Positions 34,810 to 56,771 of a DNA stretch of 64,000 bases are shown here, in pieces. Origin of the DNA: Theileria orientalis strain Shintoku (Eukaryota; Apicomplexa; Aconoidasida; Piroplasmida; Theileriidae); contig NC_025262.1 in NCBI RefSeq assembly GCF_000740895.1, positions 798,001 through 862,000 on the forward strand, read 5' to 3'. The notes beneath the pieces were generated by a model. It did no database searches. It was not told where the DNA came from and saw nothing but the letters and a program-made list of their open reading frames with translations. A program made the translations under genes and the position numbers. Numbering within the stretch: the first letter of the stretch is position 1; each line of letters starts with the position of its first letter.

Positions 34810-35225
34810 ATTTAAATAATATTAGTATTATAGATGAGTATATGGCATTGCGTGTCTGTGAAAGTGTGTTTTAAAAGAGTAGGTGGTATTTGAGTGGGTG
34901 GATAAATGTGCTGAGGAGTTAGGGAGTAAAAAGGAAAATTGAAGGTATATGTATTAAAATATACGATTAATGGTGAAAATGGAAGTTGCGATGGTGAAAT
35001 TTGAGTAATTTGAAAAGATATTCGGTGAAAATAAATATTTATTGTGTAATGGATGGTGGGACTGGAATCTATGTGTAGTTCCGCAAAATATAAGTTTTAA
35101 TGTAGTCCAACCGAATCATGAAAACACGAACAGCATGATTGAAAAAAACAATAAATATAATGTTTAAAAACACGCGGAGTTGGACTCGGAATACAAATAA
35201 TCCGAAGGTGGAGTGATAAGATAAA
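34810..35225. other. Tandem spacer, NEMF/DMXL
   Basis: About 415 AT-rich bases between two plus-strand genes. It should hold the NEMF 3' end and the DMXL promoter. I see no ORF or repeat array. Confidence 0.6.
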
Positions 35226-38200
35226 ATGAGACATATTTCATACATTCGTAAAATATTGAGGCCTGCATACGGGTCTAAAGAAGATAGCTGTACAATAGAT
35301 GTGTTGGATTTCGCAACTTTATCCGTAGGAAGAAAAAATTCCACTACACCCTGGTCTGCCACGGACAATTTGACAATAGTGGCCTCTATACTCAGAAGTA
35401 AGAGCAAAAGCAGCGACGATGAGGAGCCGATAAATACCACACTGCTGGTTTTCTGGCTGGAGAGGTACGACGCGGTGGTGAAGGACCTGCTTCTGAGCGA
35501 GACGGCGCAGCGGAAGAATCTCGGCTTCGTGAGCACGCAGAGCTCGGACAGGACCTCTAAAACGATACTGAAGGGGGAGTTGTGGTCGCTGTGCCACCAT
35601 AACTCAGTGATAAGCGCGAGCTGGAAGAAAAATCGCAACGCGCCGACGCCAGTGCACAAGCTGTTCCTGGTGACCTTGACGAAGAAGTACATGGCGTACA
35701 TATGGCGCTTCAACGAGATGAAGGACTCGTTCGAGATCTGCATCCAGATAGCGCTGCAAAACGTCAACTACGACCTGAACTTCCAGTGCCTGTGGATGAA
35801 CATAGAGAGCGAGGTGCTGGACTACAACTTCAGCAGCAGAGCATTCATAATCTTCTACAACACGACCACGGCGAGCCACTACAGCATCGTGACGAACGAG
35901 CAGGACAGCATGGCGAGGCCGGACCTGAATCTGAACGTGGAGGAGGACGTGCGACACAGTTACCTGTGCGACTACTTCAATAGCATGGACCTGAAGACGG
36001 ACGTGGAAGAATGCCTCTGGGAGACTGACCACGAGGACAAGGAGGACGAAGAAGAAGAAGAGTCGACAGGAGCCTCGCAGGACGAGAACATCGTGTTTGG
36101 AAGGTACGACGACTACGCACAGTACTTTGAAATCTACGGAATCGACGGCCTGTACAACTACCAGCTGGCAGTGACGAGCGAGTACATCCTGGGAAGCAAC
36201 GAGATAACAATGCCGATCAAAATCAAGTCGATCGAGTCAGTGGTGATGTGCAATCACACATTCGAGACGGGGCTGGTGACGCTGTACACGAGCGAGACGC
36301 TGAGGCCGAACAAGATAACGACGAAGTTCCCGATCAGCGTGAGCAAGTGGATCACGCTCAAGTCGACGAACCTGAGTAACTTCTACAGCGCAATGAGCAA
36401 CAAGGAGAGCAGTCTGACGGGCTCGGACGTGGGAAGCGACAACACGACGGCGAAGGAGGAGGAGAGCGGCTACAACGACGTCCTGGACGAGCTGATAGGG
36501 ATGCAGATATCGAAGGGACTCAACAAGATAATACCGCCGATAAACCTGAACGTGCTTAACGAGAACGACGTGACGATAAACCTGCTGCTCTCGCCGTACG
36601 ACCTGTTTCTGAAGGACGAACACATAAAGGAGTCGGTGGACAACATAGTGGGCCTGGTGATAAGGTACATGTTCCACCCGAGCACGCCGCTGTACCTGAA
36701 GGTCAACGAGCAGTTCGTGTACATCGAAAACTACTTCATCAGCAAAATCAAGAGCAGCAAAAAGGTAAAAAACGTGAAGGTGTTCAGCGACAAGGACGAG
36801 ACGCTGTACATAATTCACTCATTCAGCGGGAAGCTGAGCGCCCTGACGAGCAAGAAGCACGACCCGAACGACATAACCTACCACAAGATACACAACCTGC
36901 GCTTCGTGTCGACGTTCCAGGTGGTCGAGTACCACCACCAGCTGTACTTCATAGTGTTCAGCCCGCACGGGCTGGAGTCGCAGAGAGATTACGGGAACCC
37001 GGAGAGCGCAAGAGCCCAGGAGGACGGTCGTGGCACGGTTGGGGAGGACGGGTTGTACAACTGCGGTTTCTACAAATGGGAAAACTACAAGTTGAACATG
37101 AAGGGGCAGTGGCTGTTTAAATCGCCGAATGTGCAGCCGGGTAAGCATTTTAGTTGTTACGGCGAGTCAGTACAAATGTCAGGCACTTATAAAAATGTTG
37201 GTTCGCGTCACTCTCCTACACTTAAACCGATTGACAGGCTAAATGTTAGTAGCACAACTCGGGTCGAGACTGCAGCAACACAGTATTCAAGTAGTATAAA
37301 GCGCCCACCCTATGATCACAACGCACCAGAAACACCAGGGCAATCGAATTTTGATAAGTGTAGCCCTGATAAGGGGGAAGAAAGAGCAAGTCAGTTTAGT
37401 GACGATGACCCATACATGAAGTATGGCAACAGTGTTGCGTCAGACCGTAGAATTGGAAGGCAAACGTCGCCGCAAAACGGTGTGAGTCGCCAGTACAACA
37501 GGTCGGGAGAGGATCGGCGGTACATGGGCTCAAGTTGGAGTGATCACCAGGATGATCAAGTAGCGGACGCAGTGTTGCAGTTCAAAAAATGGTGCGACTC
37601 GAACTACTTCTGTTTGCTGTCTAAATTTAAGTTGATAACGGAGTTCGAAGAAGAGGAAAGATGCGACGAGAGTGAAGAGAGTGGCGCTGAAGATGTAATA
37701 TACCTGTACCTGATCAGAAGGCACAAAATCGTTAAGTGGATGGAGATAAAGGAGAGCTACTACTACGACTTTCTCACAAAAAATAAGTACTTTTTGGAAA
37801 ACCACGAAGATAGAAAGGAGTACGTGCTGGGAGACCTGAAGATACTGATCAAGGGAAGGAGGGTGAGCGAGGAGTTGTCGGAAAGCGAAAGGATGCTTCT
37901 GGCCGAGGAAAGTGAGGTGCTGGACGAGCTGCCGCTGTTCATGGGATGCCACTTCAAGAACAAGATGTACCCAGTGTACCACCCGGAGACCGTGCTTACG
38001 ATATACAAGCTGGGGCTGAACAACATCGCGTCGAAGCTGATCAACATGCTGGTCTTCGTGTACAGAAAGACGCTGAACCAGTTGAACAACGAAGTGTACT
38101 GCATCAACGCGGACCCGTACGACAGCAGCTCAGCAGATTCGAGAGAAAGAGTGGACGCTGAGGAAATGGGAGAGTACGGAGTGAGCAGCTGCAACTGTAT

Positions 38201-41200
38201 AATATTTAAGACGCTGAGCCTGAAGCTTTTCTGCAAGTTCAACAGGTTCTTCTTCGACTACGTAGTGAAGAGCCTGTACACGACGAGCACGCACACGTCG
38301 CACATAGGCTTCAGCCCAATCACTAACATATACGCGGAGGACAAGGAAGTGGACGAGGCGAAGAAGAAAAATATATTGTACGACTACGTGGTCGACGACG
38401 AGTTCAACGAGTACTTCAACGAGTACTCGAACTTTAAGCAGGACGATGAGCTGCTGGTGAAGGAGCTGATCGTGTACCTGCAGGTGATAAGACTGATAGG
38501 ACTGACGTGGTATGAGCAGTACCAACTGATAAACGTGCTCATCAAGTACACGGCGAAAGGAGAAAACCTGCTTATCTTTAACACGGACAGCGACATGGAC
38601 AGCTTCGTGGGAACGGTGGGCACGAGTGACGAGGAGGACGACGAAAACGAGGAGAGCTGCAACCTGTGCGTAAACTCGAAGGTGGTGCTGAAGATGGGAA
38701 TGGAGCAGACGTCGAATAAGCTGGGGGCGGACAACAACGTCCTGAGCGCACTTATGTTGTATATGGCGTCGACGTCAGGGGGGTCGTCGTACTATAACAC
38801 GAACAGGAGCGCGGCGGAGCTGGAAGCAGTGTTCCTGAACAAGTACAAGGAGTACCTGAGAACGAAGTACGACGAAAAGAGGCAGTTGTTGAGAAATAAC
38901 CCGCTGATGTCGAGTGGAGAAGAAGAGGACGAGGAGGACAACAGTCTTATATGGCTGCTCCTAATCAAAAACGACCACCACCTGTTCGTGGAGCTAAACG
39001 AGTACCACAAGAAGGAGCTGGAGCCGCTGGGAGGAAAGAACGAGGAGCACAAGGTGGACTACATGGAGTACCTGGACGAAGTGAAGGTGGGCTACTGGAT
39101 AAAGAACAAGGAGACGTATAAGCTGCTCTTCGAAGAGGTGGAAAAGTACTTCAGGCTCAAGGTGAAGAGCTACAAGAACATCGAGGACTTTGACCAGTTC
39201 GGCTTATACCTGATGCTGCAGGGCAAGGTGAAGATATACAGCATGCTGCTGAAGACGAAGGGCTTCGAAAAATTCGCAAACTTCCTGACCAACGACTTCA
39301 GCCTCGAGAGGTGGAAGGACGCGTCGGTGAAAAACGCGTTCGCACTGATATCGCAGAGAAGGTACCTGCTCTCCTCAGCAATGCTTATCCTGGCGAACAG
39401 AGTGCAGGACGCAATCGACGTGATTCACCAGTACCTGGGAAACATGTCGCTCTGCATACTCCTGGCAAAGCTGTACGAGTTTGACCTGGGATACGTTTTC
39501 AAAAAGGTGCAGAACATGAAGGCGCAGTACGTGTTGCTGCACACGCACGCGATGGAGCTGCCGAAGTCGGGAAGGTACGAGGAGGCGAGTCCGGGAGGAG
39601 GACCTGCGAGTGTGCTAGGCAGAGGAAGGGCGACCGAAGAGGAGGAGCTGAGCATGGAGGTGGAGCAGCTGTGCAACGAGGAGACGCGAGCGGGCGTGGG
39701 CTCGGAGCCAGACAGAGAGGCAAACCTGCTGGAACTGCTGGACGGCGACGTCGACGAGCTCATCATTAACGTGAGCATCGGGATCGTACTCAAGAGCCTG
39801 GACATGCACCAGGTGGAGCAGATGATAAGAAGAAGCTCGCAGTACTACCTGGACAAGACGCCGATCATCTCAGTGCTGCTGCACTCCCTGCTTAACAGCT
39901 ACACGAGCTGGGACAAGATACTGATCTACGCAGCAAACTTCCTGCACTTCCAGAAGTTCGACAACTTCGACGAACACGACTACCTCGACTACGCGACCCA
40001 GAGCTTCACGGAGAGCTACTGCAACAACTACTACTACGAGGACGACTACAAGTACCTGGACGGGAACGTGCTCGTCGAGTTCAACAACTTCGAGTTCAAG
40101 AGGCCGCACTCGAAGTGCCCGGTCCTGAGAACGCTCTCCTCAATCATACCCGCAAGGTACAGCTCGAAGCAGATCAAGTACTCGTACCACAGCAGCAGCA
40201 TGGTGAGCATGTCGAGCGGGCACACGAGCCAGTACGCCGGGCAGACGCTGGAGGACGCGGAGGCCGAGTACCTGAGCAAGGACACGGGGTACATGGCGAG
40301 CGACAGCGACCTGATCGTCAACGTTAACACGCTGAGCGTCGTCGAGAGCCTGCTCAAGATCAAGTCGAACCTGAACATGGAGCTGACGCTGACGTACTAC
40401 AAGATCAACTCGAACATTTCGGTCAGGAACTACGACCTGGACATCGAGAGCGTGTACACGAGGCTGGTCAACACGTTCATAGGCTTCCTCGACTCGGACC
40501 TGCAGGTGGAAAACCTGAACATCCCGTCGCTGCTGCTCAACCTGATCCACAAGCTCTCGCTGCTGACGATCTACAGCAGTAACCTGAACAACCCGGACGA
40601 AGTCACGCCGACGACCTTCGAGAACCGAGACGACCTGGAGGCGAAGGTGGAGTCCTCGAACAGGCTGGACGTGGGCCTCTACGACAGCGACCTGAAGCTG
40701 GTGAACGACGAAATCGTCTGCGTCTGCTTCGTGGTCGCGCTGAGCTGCATCTTCGTGCTCATGATGTACAAGGTGGACATCCTGCCGCAGGTCTACAACG
40801 GGCTCTACACGCAGCTGACGCTGCTGAACCAGATGAAGGGCAACGGCGAGTGGCTGGCGCAGTTTTTGGAGTCTGCGATAAAAACGGTAGAGCCATCGCT
40901 CTTCACGAACAACGTGTACAACATCGACAAGCTGAACATAGTGATCGAGAGGACGATGGAAGGCCCGAGGCACGGCGAGGGCAGTTACACGGGAAGCGGC
41001 GGCGGCGAGGAGCTCGACGAGTAAGTGATGAACGTTGATTGTCTTGCTATTTACTGAAATCGGTGCTGGTTGTTATTTAATTAGTCTGCTACTTAGATAC
41101 CTATTTAGTTAGGCGGTTAGTTCGTTGGTTATGCCGTTAGATAGATAGGTGGTATATTGTTAACTGTGTTTACTGTAACTTAGAACAAAAATATGCAGGT

Positions 41201-43824
41201 TCATCGGAGTAATAATGACGCTGTCGATCCTGGAGACGATCCTGGGCCTGATGAGGAACTACATATACAAGCAGACGAACTACTACCACTACTTCTGGCT
41301 CGACAGACTGAGCGTGAGCATATCGAAGTACCTCTTCAACTACAGAGATCAGATGATCAAGCTCTCGCTGCGCTCGGCGGACACGCTGTACGACCTTAAC
41401 TACGAGTACCTGAAGGCGGACAGCCCGCGAAGCAAGTTTCTGAAGGACGCGAAGTACAGCGACCACGAGGACATAGTAAACAACTATCTGCTGACCAGGT
41501 ACAACAACGCGTTCTATAAGCTGTGGTCGTACCTGAACTGCAGCCACAAGCTGTACTCAATATACTCGTGCAACCACAACCTAAACCCGTACGGGAGTAA
41601 GGTTAACGGGAACGGAGACCCGAACAGAGAGGAAAAGTACTACGACGACAAGGACGACTACAACGAGCTGTACAACATAGTGGAAAACTACCAGATCATC
41701 AACTGCGAAAACCTGCTCATACCGCTCATAGTGCCCATGAAGCTCTTCTTCTACAAGCTCTACTACTACTCGAACCACCAGCTGTACCTGAACAACGCGA
41801 CGTCGACGTACACGCAGCAGAAGGACGCGAAGAGCAAGGAGAAGAACAAGGAGGAGCTGGAAACGGACGTCCTGATGAAGAAGATAATCGACAACCTGAG
41901 GAAAATCAGGTTCATCTCGCTGCACAACGCGAAGGGGAGGACGATGAGCACGTTCTACACGATGCCGAACATAACGCTGAACGACCACGTGAGTCACCTG
42001 TCGCTGCAGCTGCTGGTGGACCCGATCAAGAGCGACCTGCACCTGCTGACGGAGCTCAACACGAGGCTCTCGCTGCACCAGCTGAACAGCAAGATGACGA
42101 GCAGCGTGGTGAACCTGCTGGTGGACTACAACAGCGGCGGGAGTCAGCAGCCGAGAGAGCCGCGAGGAGAAAACAACTGGCTCATACTGCTCAAGCTCCT
42201 CAAGTACCTCGACAGGTACTCGACGACGTTCATCGAGGAGCTCTTCCACATCAAGAGGAGCAACCTGAGGATATCGTACAGCCTGCAGAGGCTGTTCAGA
42301 AACAGGGAGACGTCGAGCAACTCGGGAGGGATAGCGCCGCACCCGGTCTGGCCAGTCTACGCAATAGTGCACGGGGCGACGGGGGAGAAGGCGACGCCCT
42401 CGTACACAGTGTCGCTCCAGCACTCGCGCGTGCTCTCAAACGAGTTCAAGTACACGAAAAACAACATCCTGCTCGACAACCTGATTAACATAGTTAACGT
42501 GACCTCGCTGCAGCTGACGACATTCCACTCAAACAACCTCTTCGGAGACCTGCTCTACATCGACTGGTCGGGCGACTCGCTGTGCCTGTACGACAAGTAC
42601 GGGTGGCTCCTGGTCTACTACATGAAGAACCTGCTCTACAAGAACGCGAACGCGGCCTCGGGGAAGGCGGGGAAGCAGGCCAGCGACATAATTCCCGCAG
42701 CCTCGATTCCGACGATAAGCTTTAAGACGCACTTCGCGGCGTACTACATGTCGTGGCTGGGAGAGTACTTTATCCTGACGATGGGATACGGAATACAGAA
42801 GGAATCAATAGAGCAGGACATCGTGCACATAAACATGAGTTTGAAGGAGGAGGAGGAAGTGCAGGAGCCGGAAGAGTATGCGGAGGCTGAAGGCCAGCTG
42901 AAGCTGGCGGGCTCGCAGTTCAGTAACGAGTTGAACGGGTACGCAGGCCACCTGGACAGTCAGCTCATCGGTCACCTGGACGGCCATCTGGATAACCAGC
43001 TAGACCTGCACCTGGATACCCACCTAGATACCCAGCTGGACCAAAAGCAGCCCATAATCAGAAACGGAAACAGAAACGGAAGCACCTCGTACGGGGCAGT
43101 GCACAGGTGCGTTGGAAGGGAGGCCCTGAGTCCGCAGGCGCTGGAGGCCTTCTGCGAGAACAGCGTACCCTGCATATGCGTGTGGAACCTGGTCGAGTAT
43201 AACAACAACAACATACCGAAAATAGAGGTCCTATTCTCGTTTGAAGGCGCCCTCGGAGCAAGTGGCGCAAGTGTCGGCCCAGGGGGCAGCGGCAGGGACG
43301 CGCCGAGAGAGGAGCCGCCGCGAGTGACGAGCGTGCTCAAGCTCCAGAATCGCAACATCAGGCACGGAAGCAAGGAGGTGGGCCTGGAGTACGACCTCCT
43401 GCTCTTCGACTCCGCGGGAGTGATGCGCGTCTTCAGCGTGAGCGACATGGACGTGGTCCTCTGCTGCTCTCTGGACGATGCCGCCATCGTGGCGAGCTTC
43501 CTCCTGGCCAACGGCAACTTCGCGGTGGTGACCGAGGACGGAAAGATCAAGGTCTTCAGGCTCGCGCGCCTGCGCGCTGTGCCCGCGCTGATATTCGAGA
43601 CCTCTTCGACGGTCGTGGAGCCCAAGGAGATCGTGAGCCAGAGCTCGCTGGTGACGACGATCGGGGAGTTCATATCGCAGCGGTTCACCCGGGAGAAGCC
43701 GCAGCCTGCCCAGCAGCCGATCAGGATAGTGAGCGTGCGTCTGTACAGCGCCCAGTTCATAACGATGGTCTACTCGGACGAGCAGGTGTCGACGACGCGG
43801 CTGCCCGACTTCGCAGTATACTAG
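35226..43824 (+). CDS. DMXL/Rav1-like giant WD40 protein (RAVE, V-ATPase assembly)
   Basis: Two exons, 35226-41020 and 41199-43824, give 2,806 aa. The first ORF ends at GTAAGT and the second opens after TATGCAG; joining them keeps frame, so these are one gene. DMXL and Rav1 proteins drive reversible assembly of the V-ATPase. The N-terminal part has beta-propeller-like blocks (ELWSLCHHNSVISASW, YMAYIWRF). The Rav1 core is near residues 1345-1430: LERWKDASVKNAFALISQRRYL, then SAMLILANRVQDAIDVI, CILLAKLYE. The C-terminal part carries more WD-like strands (LLYIDWSGDSLCLYDKYGWLLV; ICVWNLVEYN; YDLLLFDSAGVMRVFSV). Low-complexity inserts are at 37170-37540 and 42845-43060. The length resembles animal DMXL (about 3,000 aa) rather than yeast Rav1. 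GC rises toward the 3' end. Confidence 0.82.
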
Positions 43825-45727: not shown

Positions 45728-47353
45728 ATGATGATCTCTACCTTGTTATTATGTATATGCAACTTTATCTTCTTTGCTAACTGCTCAGAAATCGATTTAA
45801 AAACCTACCAAATAACTGGAAATGTTAATGTATTTCATGGATATTATAGTAAATCAGGAAAATACAAAATGCTCGTTGGTTATGAAGATCCTATTGAAAA
45901 AGTCTATTATGGATCGCAACTAGTTTATCCTGACGATCCTGAAGATGATAAAGGAACTAAATGTTTTGTCGAGATATTTGATGTGTATCGAACCATAAAT
46001 TATAGAATATACATTGTTAGTGAGAATCCAGAAATTTCAGATATTTATAAGAGAATTAATTACGTGGATGATAAAGGAGTGTTAATTAAAATACCTAAAT
46101 TAAAATTTACTAGAAGACAAGCAAGAAAAATTTATTTAAACATAGACGTTAGTAATGATAAAATTCACCCATTTATCGACAAGACCTTTGGCACATCAGA
46201 TGGCAATAATACAATAGAATGTAAAACTAAAGATCATTATCATGGATGGAGTTTTTCTGGAACTCATACGGTCTCATATAATTTCGGTAACGCATATGAT
46301 TCAACGACACCTATAGTGGTTGGATACAAAATGTTTGATGAGTTTATGACAGAATTCGGTGGAGTAACATATTATTACAAAAATAACAGGTTTGTGTTTA
46401 TAAGTAATTAATTTTCAACTATGTTATTTATTCACATAGTTGAGTTCTCTACAATACACACTTAATGATTAATTAAACAAAATCGTTAATTTAAATGATG
46501 TAGATTGGAGGGGTTATCCTTTGATAAAGGTGATGTAAAACTCAACTATATTAAGGACTTTGATGGTCCACAAACATTGTGGATTGCTATTCCCAGTAGT
46601 TTAACTGATTTGGTCGATGATAAAAAAAAATTAGCCCATTCGATTATGAACAAACCTGAACTTCAACCCTTGCCGGCTGGACTTTTAATGGTAGATGTTT
46701 CAGAAGAAATCACTCCGAGTCTATTTGGAATTGATAAGACAGTGGGAAAAATGGGCATTTGGCATTATACTTTGTACTCAGTAAACGAGAAATACAAACA
46801 GAATTTTAAGTTAGCAAGAATAGTGGATTCAATGGCAACCAATCCAGTGTTATATGCTTTAGGGGATTATGCTACTGAAAGCGTGGTAGAGAAATATAAA
46901 AGAAATGGTTCTATTTTACTATTTATCACTTCGACCATCCCTGGGTCTGTGGGCAATTTTAAGAGCGTAAGTTCGTTTATTTGGAGAAATCAGGGTGGAA
47001 CAGAGGCCTGGAACCAGTTAACTTTAACTGATATATCCTACTTTGTTAAATCATTGAACCGTAGTGGTCCAGTTCAAATAGACGTGGCAATACATGACGA
47101 ACCAACTTATGTTTATTCAAAGAGCATTTCAGAAGATCAAAATGGCTTTTACATAGATTTATCAATCAAAGAACCTGATGGTCTCGCAATAGAGGAAAAT
47201 AAGTACTTGTTCCGGAGTATTAAGGGTAAGCAAACGTACGAAAGGGGAAACATGCCAACCGATCCCTTCAAAAAAGCTGTATATTTTTTGTCAGAGTACA
47301 GTAATAGTCGTAATGTAGTGATAACAAATTCGACTGTCCCAAGGGCTGTGTAA
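45728..47353 (+). CDS. Tandem secreted family, member A
   Basis: Two exons (45728-46389, 46504-47353), 503 aa. A signal peptide (MMISTLLLCICNFIFFANCS) precedes the mature protein. Exon 1 has the family motifs IDLKTY, HGYYSKSGKYKM, EDPIEKVYYG, then KIHPFI and YNFGNAYDSTTPIVVGY. Exon 2 opens after a phase-2 intron and has DVSEEITPSLFGIDK, VVEKYKRNGSILLF, IKEPDGL and YERGNMP. The two halves look like one module repeated. No membrane helix, GPI tail or Cys framework is visible. This is the most AT-rich member. I do not recognise the family; distant relation to the Theileria FAINT (DUF529) fold is possible but unproven. Extracellular or host-exported location is inferred from the signal peptide. 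Confidence 0.85.
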
Positions 47354-47831
47354 TTCAGATCGATAGTACCATACAATAATCGTAAGATAGAATTAACGGA
47401 GCTCGTGACCACTGAATGTAGTCATTATAAAGTACATGGTAAACTATAATGTATGCTGTTTACACATTTGTGTCGTGATATTTGAGAAGATAATACTGTA
47501 CAACTAAGCATAAGTAGATAGCTAGGTGTATGGCTAACTGGCTAAAATAGCTGTTAATTTAATTTAAGGGGCATACATGGCTAAAACGTTTATCTAAATT
47601 GTATATATAATAAACAGCCGATTAGAAATTTTGGGTTCATTGCCAGCTGCATAAAATGCGAGCGGAATTAAACAATTGTAAATTCTCTAGCATTATGTTG
47701 ATGCGATTGATTGAAACGCTTAGTTTCACAGATATGGGCAGTCCAGATCACAATGTGCGGCTACAAGTACCTTAGGCACGAAAGCGATGGGCACTGAGAC
47801 GAAGCCGGGGCAGCGGACGCAGTTCTAGAGG
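47354..47831. other. Convergent spacer, family A/AMPD
   Basis: About 480 AT-rich bases between two converging 3' ends. No ORF or repeat array seen. Confidence 0.6.
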
Positions 47832-50123
47832 CTATATTGAGTGGTAGCCAGGGCCCATGGAAAATAGGGGCTCCTCGAAAATGGTCGACATGGTCTCGTT
47901 ACGCATCGCCTGCGTGATCAGCGCGAGCTCCTGACACAGAGTCTCGTAGCGGTAGCTGATGCGGATGTCAGGCACGTTTGAGCGGTGAATGTCGTTGCCC
48001 TCGGGGCCCTCCTTCATGTAGTTGGGGCCCAGCCAGTGACTCTTGACCTTGGGCGAGAACCCGCTCATGAGAACGCTGTTGCGCGCCAGCTCGCACATGT
48101 CGCAGGAGCTGAGCTTCCACACCTGGGCGGCGATGCTGTACTCCTCCATCAGCGGCTCCTTGGTGAAGTGGAAGTGCAGCGGGTCGTCGGTGGAGAGCGA
48201 TACCATGAGGCCGCGCGACAGGAACTCGGGCAGCGGACTCCTGTGGTAGCTGAGGAAGAGGCTGTTGTTGCTCAGCGGCGACATTGCGATGCCGACCTGG
48301 GCGAGGTAGTACAGGTACTGCAGAACCGGAGACTTCCTCAGCAGGAGCCCGTGCGATATGTTCTGGGAAATCATGAAGGCGGTCACCATGTGGTGGATCG
48401 GGCCCGCCTCGCCGCTGTGCGGCCTCAGCACGAAGGTGTTGAAGCCGCGCTGCTTACGCAGGTGGTTCAGGATCGTCATGTTCGCGAACATGTAGTACAG
48501 GTAGTACGCGTAGGGCGGGTTGTCGTCCATAACCCAGACGTCAGGAAGCGGCGTCTCCATGTTGAACAGGTAGTTCTCGGGCTTCGACTCGTCGTCGACG
48601 CTGTCGAACCCGTGCACGTGCTCGAGGAACAGGTGCAGCTCGGGGTGGCTCTGCGGGTTAATCGTGACCTCGAAGAGGGGAAGGAAGATGTTCTCGAGCA
48701 TCTCGTTGAAGTTCGCAAGCTGCCTCTTTGTTCTGTACACGTCGAAGAGACGCGGCACCTGCACGAGCCAGAGCACGCTGGGCGAGTGGACTCTGTTCAC
48801 GATGGCCCAGCGTGCGAGCTTGTCCCACTCGTCCCTCGAGCGGCCGTAGATCGAGAGCCGGAGCTCCGCGTTCGAGTACTTGCTATCCTCCAGGTCCGAC
48901 ATCACCTCCTTGATGATGTGCGCGAAGTACTTGCCGGAGACCCTGTTGTCGGTCTTGATGAAGATCTCCCTCAGGGCAGACTCCCCGATTGGGTTATACT
49001 TCGAGTTGAACTTGTCGAAGCGGTGGAAGGTGTTGCGGTCTGCGTGCATGTCGAGCGTGTCCACGCTCAGGTCGTAGGCAGTCAGGTTCATGCTCTCGAA
49101 GACCTCGCGCAGCGTCTGCTCGCGCCCCTGCTCCACGTGCACAATCTCGTCGGGATGCTTCTTCATGGCGCACTTGATGAAGCGCAAAAGGTGCTTCTGG
49201 TTCATGCAAGATGCGGCGTGAATGTGTGTGTCCACCTTGCGAATGTTGTAAAAGTCGCGGTGAGGAGCCCTCTTCTGGGCCGCCAGCTCCTTCATTTCGT
49301 TAAGGAGCACGTGCATCTGGAACTTTGAGCTGAGGTACTGAAGCCTGCGGTAGCAAAAGGACTTCATCGGCCCGTTGATGATCAGTGGCATCAGCGAGTT
49401 GTGGTCGACCACAAATTCCTCTAAACTCGGACAGGGCAAATCTATTTCGGTGCAATTCTCTCCGGGTTCTCTGCTGGAGTACAGGTGAACCACGCCGTGA
49501 ATCATGCGGATTCCGAGACCCATGTCCCCGGGCATTGTGCTCGGGTCGCACGTTTCGTAAGGGTGCTGCTCCATTAAGGGCGGGTGTACGGGCGCGTCGG
49601 CAGCCACGGGGGTGAGGTTGTCGAAGTCGTGGGTGTGTAGCTCCAGGGGCCTGTCGGTCAACTGCTGAATGTACCTGAGCGTGGTAGGGCAGAACGTTTG
49701 CAGAGACATGGAGATGTACTTTTCGCGGATGAAAAGCGCCCTCACGACGTACTTGGCGGCATCAAGCAGGTCGGTGAAAGGGACTCCGCACTTCTCGTCC
49801 CCGGAGATGGTCACCCTCTGAAACTCGCGCTCAAGCGATGAGTCCAGGTCCCAGGTGCCAAAACCGCCCCTGCCTTCCCGCCTTTCCTTGTACATCTGGA
49901 AGTCAATGTCGCTTTCAGACTTGAAATCCTGGCTTGTCCAAGGCGGGATTTCGGGTTCGTGCTTAACGTCCTGACTAATCTGCCTTTCCAGGCGTTTCTG
50001 TCGTTCCTCCAGTTGCTCAATTGGACTTTCGTGCGGGAACTGGTAGGAGGGGCTGCGGAGGTCGTTTTCAGGCACTGTGTAGTTGGCCTGCTCCCCGAGA
50101 ATCGTCTTAGAATTGCCATCCAT
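47832..50123 (-). CDS. AMPD: AMP deaminase
   Basis: Deaminates AMP to IMP in the purine nucleotide cycle; cytosolic. Single exon on the minus strand, 763 aa, close to yeast Amd1 (810 aa). The metal site [18 protein letters not shown], the [12 protein letters not shown] stretch, [50 protein letters not shown] and the hallmark [21 protein letters not shown] are all present and intact. The N-terminus is charged and low complexity, as in other AMPDs. Coding GC is high throughout. It interrupts the secreted family: A lies on one side, the truncated copy and B, C and D on the other, all on the opposite strand. Confidence 0.97.
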
Positions 50124-50312
50124 AGGTATTATAATGTCGAGATGTGAATCATTAATACGGGGATCAAGCGCTGCATATTAAAAACATTGTTAATTTTGTG
50201 GAACGTGGTTCCGAATAAGTAATATTACATGACGCATTCTTTCGACGGAGTGGGGATTGTCCGTTATAGGAATATAATTATTCATGGAGGTTAATTGGCT
50301 CAGATATAGATG

Positions 50313-50496
50313 TAATTTATTAAAATTATTTAGTTTAATTGGAATAAATAAATAGTTCATAAATTGAGTTTATGCAATAGCATTAAGAGGAGTTACGAGA
50401 GAGTAACAGTAACATCGATCAAGAATATAAATTATGTAAAATAATAACAATGTGCATAAACTTTATATTGTTTCTAGTCTTAGTGATTAGAGAATC
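50313..50496 (+). repeat. Direct repeat copy 1 (promoter plus signal-peptide start)
   Basis: 184 bp identical, apart from one base (T/C in AATTA[T/C]GTAA), to copy 2 at 50884-51067, offset 571 bp. It spans upstream DNA and the first 46 coding bases of gene B. Confidence 0.97.
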
Positions 50497-50541
50497 TCCG
50501 TTTTTTGCCCATATGGACCCTAGAAGGTTCAAATATTAAAA
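50451..50541 (+). pseudogene. Truncated fifth member of the secreted family
   Basis: ATG at 50450-50452 begins the same leader as gene B (MCINFILFLVLVIRES), then similarity stops at 50496 and the frame ends after 14 unrelated codons. No family sequence follows for 390 bp. This is a duplicated promoter and signal peptide without the body, either a deletion remnant or a recombination breakpoint. Confidence 0.85.
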
Positions 50542-50883
50542 AATAACAACGGAGCTCCGAAAATACATCTTAATCAACAGATGTGTATCCATCAATATCG
50601 GTTTAATCTGCCGGAATAAATTTGTGTACGATATGTGTCAAATCTAAATAAATGTGTAGATAACTTTTTGAAATATATGTCATAATGTATATAAATTAAT
50701 AAATATATGAATGAAACCTTTAAATCTAATATATAAAATATATATAGTTAAAAATGATCTATCTATAATCGAAACAAATAGAAAAATCTGTACTGAAATA
50801 TTTGAAATAATAGCCAGCCATGAGAAAAAGAATCCAAACTGATTGAAAATTGCCAAATCATTTTATTAACTCTAATTTTGATA

Positions 50884-51067
50884 TAATTTATTAAAATTAT
50901 TTAGTTTAATTGGAATAAATAAATAGTTCATAAATTGAGTTTATGCAATAGCATTAAGAGGAGTTACGAGAGAGTAACAGTAACATCGATCAAGAATATA
51001 AATTACGTAAAATAATAACAATGTGCATAAACTTTATATTGTTTCTAGTCTTAGTGATTAGAGAATC
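50884..51067 (+). repeat. Direct repeat copy 2 (at gene B)
   Basis: Partner of 50313-50496, ending 47 bases into gene B. The near identity implies a recent duplication or gene conversion. Confidence 0.97.
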
Positions 51068-52701
51068 GGTAGGGAATAATGTGTTTGTAGATTTGAAGTC
51101 AAATTACATCTCAAATGGAATAACAGTGCATCATGGCAGATTTTCAGTGAATGGAAAATACAGGATGTATATCGGTAAGGACAAAGGAATAGAGTCGGTG
51201 ATATTTGGAACAGGAGTTTTGTATAGAAGAGCAGAATGTCCAATTGGTGAACAGGTAATAGTGGAGATGTTCGAAGACATAATAGTAAAGTACTTCGTAA
51301 TACACATCTACACAGGAACAGTGCTAAACCATACGAGAGTAAAGAGGAAATATTACTCAAAATCAGATTGGGGATATAAGAAAATAGACCAAAACACATT
51401 TATGACTCAAATGACAAGCGAAGTGGAACTGATGTTTGATGTGGCGACGAAAATAATTCACCCATATATGGTTCAAATGGTGGAGAGTGAAAAATACTAT
51501 ACGGAAACATACTCACTTATCGATCAAGTAGGAGGGATAAAGCTGGACGGATTAGAAGCGCCGAAGTACACATACGGAATAGTGTACGACTCGTCAATGA
51601 TGATCAAAATGGGATATTCAGCACTAGAGTCGTTTGTATCGAAGTGCGAAAGGTTCTCAATAGAGTACAAGTAAGTGGTAAATGGATAGTGCATACTAAG
51701 AGGATGATTTTATTAATAGTTGATAAGTAAGAATTAAAAAGTAGTGAGTAGTTAATGAGTAAACACGTGAGCTTAAATAAATGAAAAAGAAGCTGTATAA
51801 CGACCATTTTAGTTTACTTGGAAATAAAATCAAGTTTGAAATGCCATTGACGATACTGGAATACAAAGTGACGAACCTGATGAATAAATTAGTATGGGAC
51901 GCACAAATAAAGGACTACACAAACGCAGTGCAGAAAGATCACGTGGAAGCACTAAAAATACAGGCGATGTTTGATGAGAAACAGGAAGCATATGAACCAA
52001 TAATATTGGATATCTCAGAACAAGTGGCACCAGAGTTGTTCGGAATAGATAAGGTGACAGGATTTCTGGGAAACGGAGAATACATACTGTACCAGATGAA
52101 GAAAGAGTACGCAGACCACTATAGAATAAAGACGGTAGTTGACACAGGGTGCGACTATAAGGAACTGTTCGAAATGGACGAAACGTTCATATTTTCATCA
52201 GTGGAAGTGTTCACGAACAAGTACAGGAAGATAGTGGTGATAAACTCGATGGTTAAGGACGGAGAAAGCCTGGTGAGAAGACAAGATATGCTGAAGAAAA
52301 TAGAAGAAGAACAAGTGTACTACAGAAGAGTGGTAGGAATGGCAAGATCGGTGGTGTACTCAGGACTGGAAAAAAACTTTCCAATAAAAATAAATCTATT
52401 TCTGCACGAAAAAGAAAACTCAGTGTATGAGTCGACAGAAACAATGAGAGAAAATGAAAAATACGTAAAGTTTCAAATAAGGGAGTCGGACGGAAGAGGA
52501 ATGAAGTACGTGTTCAAGTATATATTCGGAGACATACTGGAAAGAAGAAGGTACAAAATCGGAAATGTGCCGGAGGAGCCATGCATAAAAGACTACAACG
52601 TGCTTAAGAAAAATGTGCATCAAACGCAAGTGATAGTAGCAAGATCAGGATCTGGAGTTAACATGGAAATGACAGAGTACAGAGTGTACAATATCCTGTA
52701 A
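51021..52701 (+). CDS. Tandem secreted family, member B
   Basis: Two exons (51021-51670, 51813-52701), 512 aa. The leader MCINFILFLVLVIRESVG is a signal peptide. Exon 1 has VDLKSNYISNGI, VHHGRFSVNGKYRMY, IIHPYM and YTYGIVYDSSMMIKMGY. The intron is phase 2; of several AGs, only TTTTAG|T at 51812 restores frame and lines up with members A, C and D. Exon 2 has DISEQVAPELFGIDKVTG, VEVFTNKYRKIVVINSMVKDG, IRESDGRG and YKIGNVPEEP. No membrane helix or GPI tail. Upstream DNA and the start of the leader are duplicated at 50313. Role unknown; secreted or exported by inference. Confidence 0.87.
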
Positions 52702-53012
52702 ACGTGACAGATAAAAGAAAAAAGTAAATGTGTAGGCGTGGGAGAGTAGATCAGAAAGAAGATTAGGGATCCAGTAACAGAAACAAATTAAGAAAATATT
52801 AGATGTTTAATTTTATAAACTCTATTTCATTGATCTATACAATAAAATAGTAAATCAAATGAGAATATATGAATTATAAGCAAAGAAGATAGTTAAAATA
52901 AAAAAACTGAGCCATTAATAAAAATAGAACTAAAGGTCTTAAGTTAGTAAAAAAAAGAATCGCTGAGAAAGAAGAGTTAAATCGAAAACAAACTAAAGAT
53001 CTGAAGGCCAAA
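52702..53012. other. Spacer, family B/C
   Basis: About 310 A-rich bases between tandem genes; should hold the 3' end of B and the promoter of C. Nothing else seen. Confidence 0.6.
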
Positions 53013-54795
53013 ATGATTTATTTTAACATATTTCAATTATTCTTTATTCTGAAACTCTGCTCAGGAATGAGGTACATAGACCTGAAAAACAACGTTATCT
53101 CAGATGGAGTGGAAGTGGAACACGGATATTTCATGACCTCGGGAAAGTACAAGATGTTTCACGCGAGAGATCCGCCGCTTGAAGTCATCCAGTACGGGCA
53201 GACGAGAGTGTTCCCGGACATGGACTACGTGGAAGGAACGCACTCGCTCTTCGTCGAACAGTTCAAAGTGGGCGACGAAGAGGCGCTGAGCATATACGTC
53301 TTTAGGATCTCGGTGACCACCAGCAGCGTAGTGTACAAGGTCTATTTCCAAAAGGCGGAGTTCTGCTACAAGTTGATAGACTGCAGCAAGTTCACGGAGC
53401 TGATCAAGGGCAAGATACACCTGTCGATAGACCTGTCGAGAAGCAAGAACCACCCGTTCTTCAACGTACACACGAAGGAGGAGCACGGCGTGTCGACGAC
53501 GCTGATAGAGATAAGGAAGTCGATATCAGGTTTCAGACTAAGAAACGTAGAGACTAAGAGGTACGAGTTCGGAAGAGTTATGGACTCGGGATTCCCGATA
53601 TACATGGGATACTCAAAGCTAAACATGTTTTTAACCAAGGCCACATCAATATTTATACACAAAGAGTAAGTTTATAGGAACTTAGACAGTTAATAACAGT
53701 GAGTAGTTATGTTAAGCACAAATATATGTATACGTAAGATTAGTGATGCAAGTATATGTGTATGGGTATAGTTATGTGTATATAGGTGTAGCTTTTTACA
53801 TATAGCTATAGCTGGGTAGATGTATATACATATGTGTTTACATAAGGTGATACAGTTGTGTATAACTGTATACGATTAAGTGCAAATATATAAACGTGTT
53901 TAGGGATAATAGAAACTACATTGTTCTGAGACATTGGACTAAAAATATAAGGTTTGATTTAACTACGATCAATGGAATACTATCTTGGAATGCAGTAACT
54001 GACCCGGAGCCGAGCCTGTCGGAAGATATGCACCTGAAGGTGTTCAAAGTGAGAGATAGAATAGACGCATACAAAGCACTGAACGTGTTATCGACGCTGG
54101 ACTTGGCGGAAAACATATCACCGGAACTTCTGGGAATAGAAAAGATAACAGGAAGACACGGAGGAGCCTCGTACATACTATATCACTTTGAATTGGGAAA
54201 GGAAAAACGTAATAAAATAAAGTACATAGTCAACAGTGAGATGGTAGACATGCTAATAGCAAAGATAGATGACAGGACGTTGCACACCAAGGTGGAAATA
54301 ATAACAAATTCACACAGAACATTTGTGATGATAACGTGCCTGATGAAGATAGACCTGGCTTATGAAACAGTGATAAACTACTACGACAAGCCGAACATGG
54401 AGAACACGAGCTACTACAACATACCAGAGCCTTACCAGACTAAGATCGTATCAGACATGTACGAAAAGTTCCCGATTCAGATAAACCTGGACATCGATGA
54501 CCCGCCCTCAATAGTGGACCACGGAGAGATTCAGTACGACGAGTTCGTCCTCAAGTACTACAGAATCAAGAACGAGGACGGAAGAGGATCAGTACTGACA
54601 GGAAAGTACGTGTTCGGAGACGTATGGAAAAAGGATCTGTACGAAGTAGGAAACATTCCATACGAGGAAAACAAGAAAAGGTACAAGGTGTTAGCGCACT
54701 CAGTGAACTCGAGTAGGATCATAGTGAAGCCAAAAAATATGGAGTACCCGGTACTTCCGGAGGAATTGCAAGAGTATGTAATAATAGATGGTTAA
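53013..54795 (+). CDS. Tandem secreted family, member C
   Basis: Two exons (53013-53665, 53904-54795), 514 aa. Signal peptide MIYFNIFQLFFILKLCSG. Exon 1 motifs: IDLKNNVISDGV, HGYFMTSGKYKM, DPPLEVIQYGQTRVFP, NHPFF and YEFGRVMDSGFPIYMGY. Phase-2 intron of 238 nt with TG/TA-rich low complexity (53690-53860). Exon 2 motifs: DLAENISPELLGIEKITG, VEIITNSHRTFVMITCLMK, IKNEDGRG, KYVFGDV and YEVGNIP. Within this member the end of exon 1 (KRYEFGRVMDSG) and the end of exon 2 (GKYVFGDVWKKD) align with each other, supporting an internal repeat. Coding GC is higher than in A and B. Confidence 0.88.
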
Positions 54796-55155
54796 GTGAT
54801 GGTCTGTGAACTAATTTTATTAGTAGCCATACTTGTGAATACATGTTAGTAGTACATATAGTGTTTACATCTGTAAATGAGAAAAGTGAAAAGGGTACAC
54901 ACAAAGGGGAGTTGTCGAGCAATAGATTCATGAACAAGGACGAGTTTTAAACGTGGTAGAAACCTAGAGAAACCATATCAATGAAAGCAGTAATTAGTGG
55001 AAAAAGTTAGAATAAAGGTAAGGAGCCTAAGGGCAAAAATTGAAAAAAATTGTAGATCAGTAAATATATAGATCAGATGTAATTTTTTAAACTAGAGCGT
55101 TAAGTAAAATACAAACCAATGTTTTAATGTTTAAGTGTCTAAAATTGATATAGCA
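54796..55155. other. Spacer, family C/D
   Basis: About 360 AT-rich bases between tandem genes. No ORF or repeat seen. Confidence 0.6.
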
Positions 55156-56771
55156 ATGGCTGTCATAGTGTGTGTGTTAGCAATGATGCTACTCAAGTGC
55201 AATTGCACTAAAATGTACGTGGACGTCAAAATAAACTATATGTCGGAAGGTGTAATAGTACACCACGGCACATACTTGAAAAACGGCTCATACAAGATGT
55301 TTCTCGGGGAAAAGGACCCGCTGGAAGTGGTTTTCTACGGAAACTCACGCCTTTACCCGCCGAGGCTGGAGACGAAGGACCCGAACAGCCACCAGCTCAT
55401 CGTGGAGGTGTTCCACACAGGAACCAGAATGTTCGTCGTGGTACACAACTACTCCTTCCTAGGGGACGACCCGGTGGGTTACGGTAGAATATTCTTTGAA
55501 TTGGGAATGGACACTTACATAGAGGTGGATTTGCCCGCGATGGTGACAGTTATAACTTCGACAGTACATTTGTCTGTGGACATAGGGCCTAAGCACAGAC
55601 ATCCGTTCATAATGAGAACTGTGGAGGACTTAACGACTGAAAAAAAAGTGACGTACAAGGTGGTGGAAACGTTCAACAGAATACCACTGGATGGTATAAA
55701 CGCACCCAAGTACGCAATAGGATACGTTTACGATAGCACTGCGCCAGCAGTGATAGGATACACTAAAATGAACTATCTGCACGACAAGTGTTTGTCGTTC
55801 ACTGTGGACTACAAGTAAGTTTATAGGATTAAAGACATCTGGTGTTTTGGAGTTTGATTTACTGAGACATCTCTTTCAGGTTTAACGCTGAGAAGGTGAC
55901 GATAAAGGCGGTAAATTACATTCTTATATATGAGAGGAGGACGATTCTCAACATGCCAGTGTGGTACCTTGTTCTGAGGCCTGAATCGATTTTTTTGGAA
56001 GACGAGGTTAAAAACGCACTAGCTGTGTATGAAAAGCTTGAGAACCACTGGGAGAGGTACTTGCTGGTGACAGTCGACATTTCTGACAATGTGACGTCCG
56101 ACCTGTACGGAGTGGAGAAAATCATGGGAATAGCTGGCGAGTGGAAGTACGCGCTATATCAGGTGAAGCGCGAGTTCGTCAACACGTACCAAATAAGAGC
56201 AGTGGTAGACGTGACCACCCAGGTCGTGAAGATACACCGGGTGGACAAAATGGCTGCCAATACCACAGTAGAGGTGTACACCAGCGCCGACGACACTGTG
56301 GTTATAGTGACCTCTTACATGAAAAATGGAATGATCCAGGACAAGGAGGTCGAGGTCTACGAAAAGAGAAACACCAACTTCATAGGCTTCTCGAAAATGG
56401 TGGATCCCGCTAAGACGAACGTGCTTGAGTCGTTCGTGGCTATGTACCCTATCTGTCTCGGCGTGGTCATTGGCGATAAGCCTAACGCGACCTACGGTCG
56501 CAAGGAGATAACTGGGGGCCAGTTTAAGTTCCTGTACTTCTACCTCAGGGACTCCGATTTCAGGGGCAACGACCTCAGGGACAAGTACAGGTTCGCCTAC
56601 GTCTGGGAGCGCAACCCTTACGACTGTGGAAACGTAACTGTCGACGGCTGGAGCAAACGCACCAGGGTCGTGAACAGGGAGCTAAACACGCGCAAGTTCA
56701 TGATAAGGAACACTTATTCGGCGCAGCCCGTCGACGTCAAGTCCTATGAAATTTACCAGCTCATGGAATGA
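55156..56771 (+). CDS. Tandem secreted family, member D
   Basis: Two exons (55156-55814, 55880-56771), 516 aa. I start at ATG 55156 because the open frame upstream begins with GTG. Signal peptide MAVIVCVLAMMLLKCNC. Exon 1 motifs: VDVKINYMSEGVI, HHGTYLKNGSYKM, DPLEVVFYG, RHPFI and YAIGYVYDSTAPAVIGY. Phase-2 intron of 65 nt ending in CTCTTTCAG. Exon 2 motifs: DISDNVTSDLYGVEKIMG, VEVYTSADDTVVIVTSYMKNG, LRDSDFRG and YDCGNVTVDG. The 3' part of exon 2 is GC-rich, unlike A. No membrane helix. It is the last member before the methionine aminopeptidase gene. Confidence 0.88.

What the first reader, a model, noticed from the sequence alone, without database searches (positions are those of the whole stretch)
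45728..56771. Tandem family of secreted proteins with an A-B-A'-B' duplicated architecture
Four genes (A 45728, B 51021, C 53013, D 55156) encode 503-516 aa secreted proteins. All have one intron at the same place in phase 2. Each exon ends in a similar module: exon 1 has HP(F/Y) then Y.(F/Y)G.VYDS.....GY, and exon 2 has DGRG-like turns then Y..GN.P. Each exon begins with a similar strand set: exon 1 DLK.NYIS.G..V.HG.Y...GKYKM, exon 2 DISE...PELFGI.K.TG. So the ancestral unit seems to have been one exon of about 220-290 aa that duplicated, and then the two-exon gene expanded in tandem. I know of no named family with this layout; a distant FAINT/DUF529 link is possible. A secreted expanded family in a piroplasm suggests host interaction.
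Basis: partly seen in the sequence, partly recalled or inferred. Interest (0 to 1): 0.8.

Follow-up and report, generated by a model that had tools for sequence, protein, structure and literature searches.

The report
Secreted four-module parasite gene family
Four neighbouring genes in the cattle blood parasite Theileria orientalis code for related, probably secreted proteins that seem to be built from four repeated beta-sheet modules, some of which look like very distant cousins of the FAINT domain of secreted Theileria proteins.

Summary
The window lies in Theileria orientalis Shintoku. Genes A-D (503, 512, 511, 516 aa) each have one phase-2 intron at the same place and a signal-like N-terminus, share 24-28% identity, and are the only places found in the assembly. 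Pfam and NCBIfam give no accepted match; database relatives found are all T. orientalis.

The reading is partly right. A model of protein D (pLDDT 68.5) shows a series of twelve elements twice, offset by 263-274 residues. But the repeat does not follow the exons: the intron falls inside the first repeat, and the second starts about 60 residues into exon 2. Profile comparison alone does not detect the duplication.

Each repeat seems to be two modules, giving four. Modules 1 and 3 resemble the FAINT repeat unit (hhalign 23.6 and 15.8; reversed control maximum 13.2, unrelated maximum 15.2; genuine FAINT units 33.5-78.8). Module 2 is weak, module 4 at chance. Pfam FAINT finds none of the four proteins, so I call the family FAINT-like, possibly diverged FAINT, not a FAINT member. 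Function is inferred: secreted binding modules.

The parts
45728..46389 (+). Gene A exon 1 (signal-like N-terminus, module 1 and most of module 2)
   Evidence: Splice model; protein identical to P0004
46504..47353 (+). Gene A exon 2 (rest of module 2, modules 3 and 4), stop included
51021..51670 (+). Gene B exon 1
   Evidence: own-genome match to D exon 1, E 2.0e-31
51813..52701 (+). Gene B exon 2, stop included
   Evidence: relatives P0005 and P0006, 71% and 63% identity
53013..53665 (+). Gene C exon 1
   Evidence: own-genome match to D exon 1, E 9.1e-25
53913..54795 (+). Gene C exon 2, stop included (acceptor at 53904 is a legal alternative)
55156..55814 (+). Gene D exon 1
   Evidence: protein identical to P0001
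55880..56771 (+). Gene D exon 2, stop included
   Evidence: P0001
55210..55539 (+). D module 1 (residues 19-128), FAINT-like
   Evidence: Strand order; hhalign 23.6 to the extended FAINT profile with residues 17-140, reversed max 13.2
55543..56006 (+). D module 2 (residues 130-262), interrupted by the intron 55815-55879
   Evidence: Strand order; weak FAINT-register match 12.4
56055..56414 (+). D module 3 (residues 279-398), FAINT-like
   Evidence: hhalign 20.5, 15.9, 15.8, 15.5 with four FAINT profile versions
56430..56768 (+). D module 4 (residues 404-516); no FAINT signal
   Evidence: Strand order; hhalign 8.0-9.7
50291..50496 (+). Partial copy of the 5' flank and signal-peptide codons of gene B, 96% identical to 50862-51067
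   Evidence: the repeat finder

Best explanation
A small secreted family of T. orientalis. Each protein is a signal peptide followed by two copies of a two-module unit, so four beta-rich modules of about 110-145 residues in the order A-B-A'-B'. The modules, at least A and A', are FAINT-like: similar order of strands and similar repeat spacing to tandem FAINT domains, but diverged past the Pfam FAINT model. Most likely mechanism: the protein enters the secretory route and acts as a soluble multi-module binding scaffold at the parasite surface or in the host cell, with the paralogues diverged to bind different partners. Shown: genes, introns, homology, hydrophobic N-terminus. Supported by models and profiles only: the four-module order and the FAINT likeness. 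Inferred: secretion, site and binding.
For: Gene models and homology. Hydrophobic N-terminus in 4 of 4; best later 19-residue hydropathy 1.13, 1.40, 1.37 and 1.63 in A-D. Repeated element order with near-constant offset in D and its permutation tests. Module 1 against the extended FAINT profile 23.6 over 80 columns; 30 reversed windows of the same alignment mean 10.1, max 13.2; 141 unrelated single-sequence windows mean 8.6, max 15.2. Module 3: 20.5 against 60 column shuffles max 15.0, 15.9, 15.8 over 98 columns. With predicted secondary structure added, module 1 has hhalign probability 71%. Module starts 20, 137, 282, 411 give spacings 117, 145, 129; the median spacing of successive FAINT domains in the sampled loci of this genome is 114.5. 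The nine predicted strands of the middle FAINT domain of P0008 follow the order of module 1, though that model is poor.
Against: Pfam FAINT reports none of the four proteins, and none of the 150 FAINT places scored (of 426 candidates) lies in these genes. 38 genuine FAINT units, one per locus, score 33.5-78.8 as single sequences, all above module 1. Of 16 single family modules, 15 stay below the unrelated maximum of 15.2. My 249-row FAINT HMM gives a best full-sequence E of 14. hhalign's own probability is 0.1-12% in all but two comparisons, module 1 (45%; 71%). In one search module 1 is reached by 1 of 60 shuffles. Module 4 is at chance throughout. The FAINT tryptophan is not kept. Five FAINT alignments were tried, so the best score is a pick among several. 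Joining modules 1 and 3 in one profile lowers the score to 16.4, and modules 2 and 4 together give 9.2. The unrelated windows were single sequences, so only the reversed windows are a like-for-like control. The D model is moderate (pTM 0.56), the FAINT model poor (pLDDT 42.8). In D, hydropathy 1.63 near residue 401 touches the usual 1.6 threshold for a membrane segment (threshold recalled), so a second hydrophobic stretch is not excluded there.
Confidence: 0.5

Rival explanations
1. A new all-beta secreted family unrelated to FAINT; the likeness reflects shared beta-strand composition and spacing, not descent.
For: No accepted Pfam or NCBIfam match; no confident fold match for the D model; module 4 and nearly all single sequences at null level; FAINT tryptophan not kept.
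Against: Modules 1 and 3 exceed the reversed windows in three profile versions and the unrelated windows in the two where these were run, in a colinear register.
Confidence: 0.32
2. One reading: one exon of 220-290 aa duplicated to give a two-exon gene, which then expanded in tandem.
For: One intron per gene at a fixed place; two similar halves by predicted strand order in D.
Against: The intron lies inside module 2 and the second repeat starts about 60 residues into exon 2; exon 1 against exon 2 profiles score as shuffles do.
Confidence: 0.1
3. Decayed or wrongly modelled genes, not a real protein family.
For: Four of six deposited family proteins are short or lack the signal segment (P0002, P0005, P0006, P0007), and a truncated copy of the B 5' end lies upstream of B.
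Against: Intact spliced frames in 4 of 4, shared intron phase, and relatives of A, B and D in other T. orientalis records at 63-88% identity. No such relative of C was found.
Confidence: 0.04

Closest known systems
FAINT (DUF529, PF04385) domain proteins of Theileria
   Same: Signal-bearing Theileria proteins with tandem beta-rich modules at about 115-residue spacing; profile likeness for modules 1 and 3
   Different: Not recognised by Pfam FAINT; module 4 without signal; the FAINT tryptophan not kept; 38 of 38 genuine units score higher
p104 of T. annulata (four FAINT domains)
   Same: Signal peptide, then four modules (PMC3649978, passages seen)
   Different: p104 has a long disordered C-terminal region with an EB1-binding motif and a predicted GPI anchor; the four proteins here end with module 4 and have no hydrophobic C-terminus
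SVSP family (subtelomeric variable secreted proteins)
   Same: Expanded secreted Theileria family, the vast majority with FAINT (PMC2826314, passages; PMC2657828, start of abstract in a listing only)
   Different: These four lie at about 844-855 kb of a 2.0 Mb contig among housekeeping genes, not near an end
P0008, TOT_020000679, a T. orientalis protein with three FAINT domains
   Same: Secreted-type N-terminus and tandem FAINT units starting at 31, 150 and 262 of its frame
   Different: Clear Pfam FAINT match, E 1.8e-20

Membership tests
FAINT / DUF529 (PF04385) | Match to the Pfam model over its cut-off of 20.7 bits | tested here: not met
   0 of 4 full proteins and 0 of 8 exon pieces; 150 FAINT places scored of 426 candidates in the genome, none in the four genes. 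P0008 as positive control matches at 73.1 bits
FAINT / DUF529 (PF04385) | Profile-profile likeness to the FAINT unit | tested here: inconclusive
   Modules 1 and 3 above reversed and unrelated windows, module 2 weak, module 4 none; all below the 38 genuine units tested
FAINT / DUF529 (PF04385) | Highly conserved tryptophan (18 of 18 rows in A7; 118 of 129 extended units) | tested here: not met
   The aligned residue in D is Y in module 1 and H in module 3. Some genuine units also lack it (11 of 129), so it is not a strict requirement
FAINT / DUF529 (PF04385) | Same fold | tested here: inconclusive
   Predicted strand order agrees for module 1, but the FAINT model has pLDDT 42.8 (middle domain 50-76) and no superposition was possible
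FAINT / DUF529 (PF04385) | Usually in proteins with a signal peptide | tested here: met
   Hydrophobic N-terminal segment in 4 of 4, by hydropathy only; no dedicated predictor was at hand
SVSP family | Subtelomeric location | tested here: not met
   About 843.7-854.8 kb of a 2,000,793-base contig
Merozoite antigen family of Tams1 (PF02488; accession seen in PMC5460460) | Match to the Pfam model | tested here: not met
   Not among the families listed for the four proteins at E up to 5; HMMER's filters drop most matches above about 0.1

The most novel reading that the evidence does not exclude
The recognised FAINT proteins are only part of a larger superfamily: Theileria genomes hold secreted families, such as this one, that descend from FAINT but have diverged until no sequence model sees them, and this family fixed a two-module unit that duplicated as a block.
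Probability: 0.38. Interest if true: 0.6.

Novelty: new variant of a known kind. Interest (0 to 1): 0.42.

Why it matters
FAINT proteins are numerous in Theileria (142 proteins in T. orientalis Shintoku according to PMC9323827, passages). Pfam calls the domain one of unknown function, and I found no solved structure by sequence. If families like this one are diverged FAINT, counts of secreted proteins based on Pfam are too low, and a compact four-module protein without disordered tails would be a good target for solving the fold. Four of the six deposited family proteins found are short or lack the signal segment, which would hide them from lists of secreted proteins.

Tried and rejected
Exon 1 against exon 2, and unit 1 against unit 2, by hhalign: 14.3 against 60 shuffles (mean 13.7, max 23.0) and against 40 shuffles (mean 13.4, max 19.3). 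With secondary structure 15.8, above two reversed controls (11.5 each) but below the mean of 60 block-shuffled controls (18.3, max 27.7). Rejected as proof of duplication. At low stringency the same comparison gives a colinear 206-column alignment, which I count as a hint only.

Pairing: I chose the twelve pairs by hand from the order of predicted elements. Left out were the first pair E20-23/E282-286, the unpaired E121-123 and H293-296, the two-residue strands, and everything after E186-192/E456-464, where the units agree less well (unit 1: H203-211, E212-220, E223-230, E234-242, E245-253, H261-274; unit 2: E481-485, E492-498, E511-515).

FAINT by HMMER: no accepted match; my HMM from a 249-row FAINT alignment gave a best full-sequence E of 14 with the database size set to 4000. 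Protein comparison of the exon 2 and exon 1 alignments with 18 FAINT domains: probability 0.4% and 0.8%. A scan of the window's open frames with my FAINT HMM gave nothing below E 1.4. Units 1 and 2 undivided against the 27-locus profile: 14.1 (60 shuffles max 14.6) and 20.8 (max 16.6).

One search is void for FAINT: I read 15 of its 26 loci, those on the minus strand, in the wrong direction. One search repeats it with 27 of the 30 FAINT loci (L022, L023, L035 left out as partial).

Relatives outside T. orientalis: two searches of the 5.8-billion-protein set gave 2 proteins (E 0.001) and 5 (E 1), all labelled T. orientalis except P0003, which is the window's own. That search needs shared 5-residue words, so distant T. 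parva or T. annulata relatives are not excluded. No DNA of other Theileria was at hand.

Papers: among the titles and abstract starts listed I saw no description of this family. The T. orientalis genome paper, looked up by a recalled DOI, is not held. Expression was not tested: of the piroplasm proteome paper PMC9610513 I saw the outline with abstract and section 3.5, which do not allow mapping to these genes.
Full report
WHERE IT IS. The window is part of a 9.01 Mb assembly in 6 contigs, contig 3 at 798001-862000. Protein D equals the deposited protein P0001, labelled Theileria orientalis strain Shintoku, on a contig of 2,000,793 bases, the length of contig 3. Open frames around it match housekeeping families: clathrin, a phospholipid-translocating ATPase, a DEAD-box helicase, Sua5, NFACT, a Rav1-like protein, AMP deaminase, an M24 peptidase and an FHA/RING protein; two of the frames scanned have no match. 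The family is internal, not subtelomeric.

THE GENES. A, B, C and D encode 503, 512, 511 and 516 aa after removal of one intron each (114, 142, 247 and 65 bases). All introns are GT..AG, phase 2 and at the same place in the alignment. C has a second legal acceptor nine bases upstream. The six pairs align over most of their length at 23.9-27.5% identity, E 5e-36 to 1e-70. Searching the assembly with D exon 1 and with D exon 2 returned 4 places each, which are the four genes; the one stop noted in the A exon 2 match is A's own stop codon. AMP deaminase on the minus strand separates A from B-C-D. The N-terminus is hydrophobic in 4 of 4; later stretches reach 1.13-1.63 on a 19-residue hydropathy scale, the highest in D near residue 401, which borders on membrane-like.

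RELATIVES. Pfam and NCBIfam give nothing over a cut-off (for all four; for D, A, exon 1 of B and C, exon 2 of C and a relative of B exon 2). The protein database gave P0001 (D), P0002 (88% to D), P0004 (A), P0005 and P0006 (71% and 63% to B), P0007 (63% to A) and P0003, which is B exon 2 read from the window itself. All named ones are T. orientalis; no record of C was among them.

INTERNAL REPEAT. AlphaFold2 of D with a 10-row alignment gave pLDDT 68.5, pTM 0.56. Twelve elements occur twice in the same order: E33-39/E298-305, E45-51/E308-315, E56-61/E324-329, E64-67/E337-340, E78-88/E345-354, E91-102/E358-369, E105-116/E372-383, H126-133/H397-406, E137-142/E411-417, E152-158/E425-432, E162-169/E435-442, E186-192/E456-464. 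Beyond these the two units agree less well. Lengths correlate at 0.93 (3 of 200,000 permutations as good), and sequence similarity of the paired elements exceeds 100,000 re-pairings with p = 6e-5, the last pair contributing most. The pairs were chosen by hand from the element order. Against this, plain profile-profile comparison does not rise above shuffled controls. I take the duplication as probable. The intron, after residue 219, lies within unit 1, so exon and unit do not coincide.

FOUR MODULES AND FAINT. Each unit divides into two halves, with first strands at 20, 137, 282 and 411. Successive FAINT domains in the sampled loci follow each other at a median of 114.5 residues. I collected FAINT domains from 27 of 30 loci, then from 50 loci, 236,227 bases, and compared them with the four modules (residues 19-128, 130-262, 279-398, 404-516; 17-140, 132-275, 277-412, 404-516). 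The positive control, one half of the FAINT set against the other, gives probability 98.6%. Against the 27-locus profile, with 60 column shuffles each, module 3 scored 20.5 (max 15.0), module 2 14.4 (max 13.2), module 1 13.9 (max 17.9) and module 4 9.7 (max 13.7). With 191 FAINT rows modules 1, 3, 2 and 4 scored 16.1, 15.9, 11.8 and 8.2; 26 reversed windows had max 12.6 and 157 unrelated windows max 14.2. With the FAINT unit extended to 119 columns (129 rows) they scored 23.6, 15.8, 12.4 and 9.2; 30 reversed windows max 13.2, 141 unrelated windows max 15.2. With secondary structure added: 21.9, 15.5, 13.5 and 8.0; reversed max 14.5. One genuine unit from each of 38 loci, scored as a single sequence against a profile without its locus, gave 33.5-78.8, median 56.0. 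Single family modules gave 8.3-15.6 (16 tested). So modules 1 and 3 lie between chance and genuine FAINT, module 2 is at the edge and module 4 is at chance. Among the modules themselves the best pairs are 1-3 and 2-4 (z 2.4 and 1.9), the others 0.3-1.5, as A-B-A'-B' predicts, but weakly.

The FAINT model, P0008 with three rows, is poor (pLDDT 42.8); its middle domain shows nine strands in the order of module 1. I use this as a hint only. The FAINT tryptophan (118 of 129 extended units) is not kept. Because the Pfam test was not met, I do not file the family under FAINT.

HOW IT MAY WORK. The proteins look secreted and beta-rich, with no hydrophobic C-terminus and no long disordered tail. Known FAINT proteins go to several places: p104 carries four FAINT domains at the schizont surface, where its EB1 binding does not need them (PMC3649978, passages); a FAINT protein, TA11945, was detected only within the parasite (PMC11237503, passages); SVSPs are predicted to be secreted into the leukocyte (PMC2826314, passages). 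A soluble binding scaffold at the parasite-host boundary is the most likely role, but this is inference.

VERDICT. A real, unnamed, probably secreted family with a probable internal duplication and a suggestive, unproven descent from FAINT. New variant of a known kind; moderate interest.

Noticed in passing
window 50291-50496 and 50862-51067: A 206-base direct repeat, 96% identical, 571 bases apart: the upstream copy holds the 5' flank and the first signal-peptide codons of gene B and then diverges, a truncated duplicate.
   Followed up: partly
family proteins P0002, P0005, P0006, P0007: These deposited T. orientalis proteins start inside the gene as modelled here, so the secretory signal is missing from the records.
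   Followed up: partly
window 53904 / 53913: Gene C has two legal acceptors nine bases apart; both keep the frame.
   Followed up: no
window 47982-49328: A 448-aa open frame runs antisense to AMP deaminase in a G+C-rich stretch; not taken as a gene.
   Followed up: no
window 41179-43824: An 881-aa open frame without a Pfam match, just after the Rav1-like frame at 35220-41024; perhaps further exons of the same gene.
   Followed up: no
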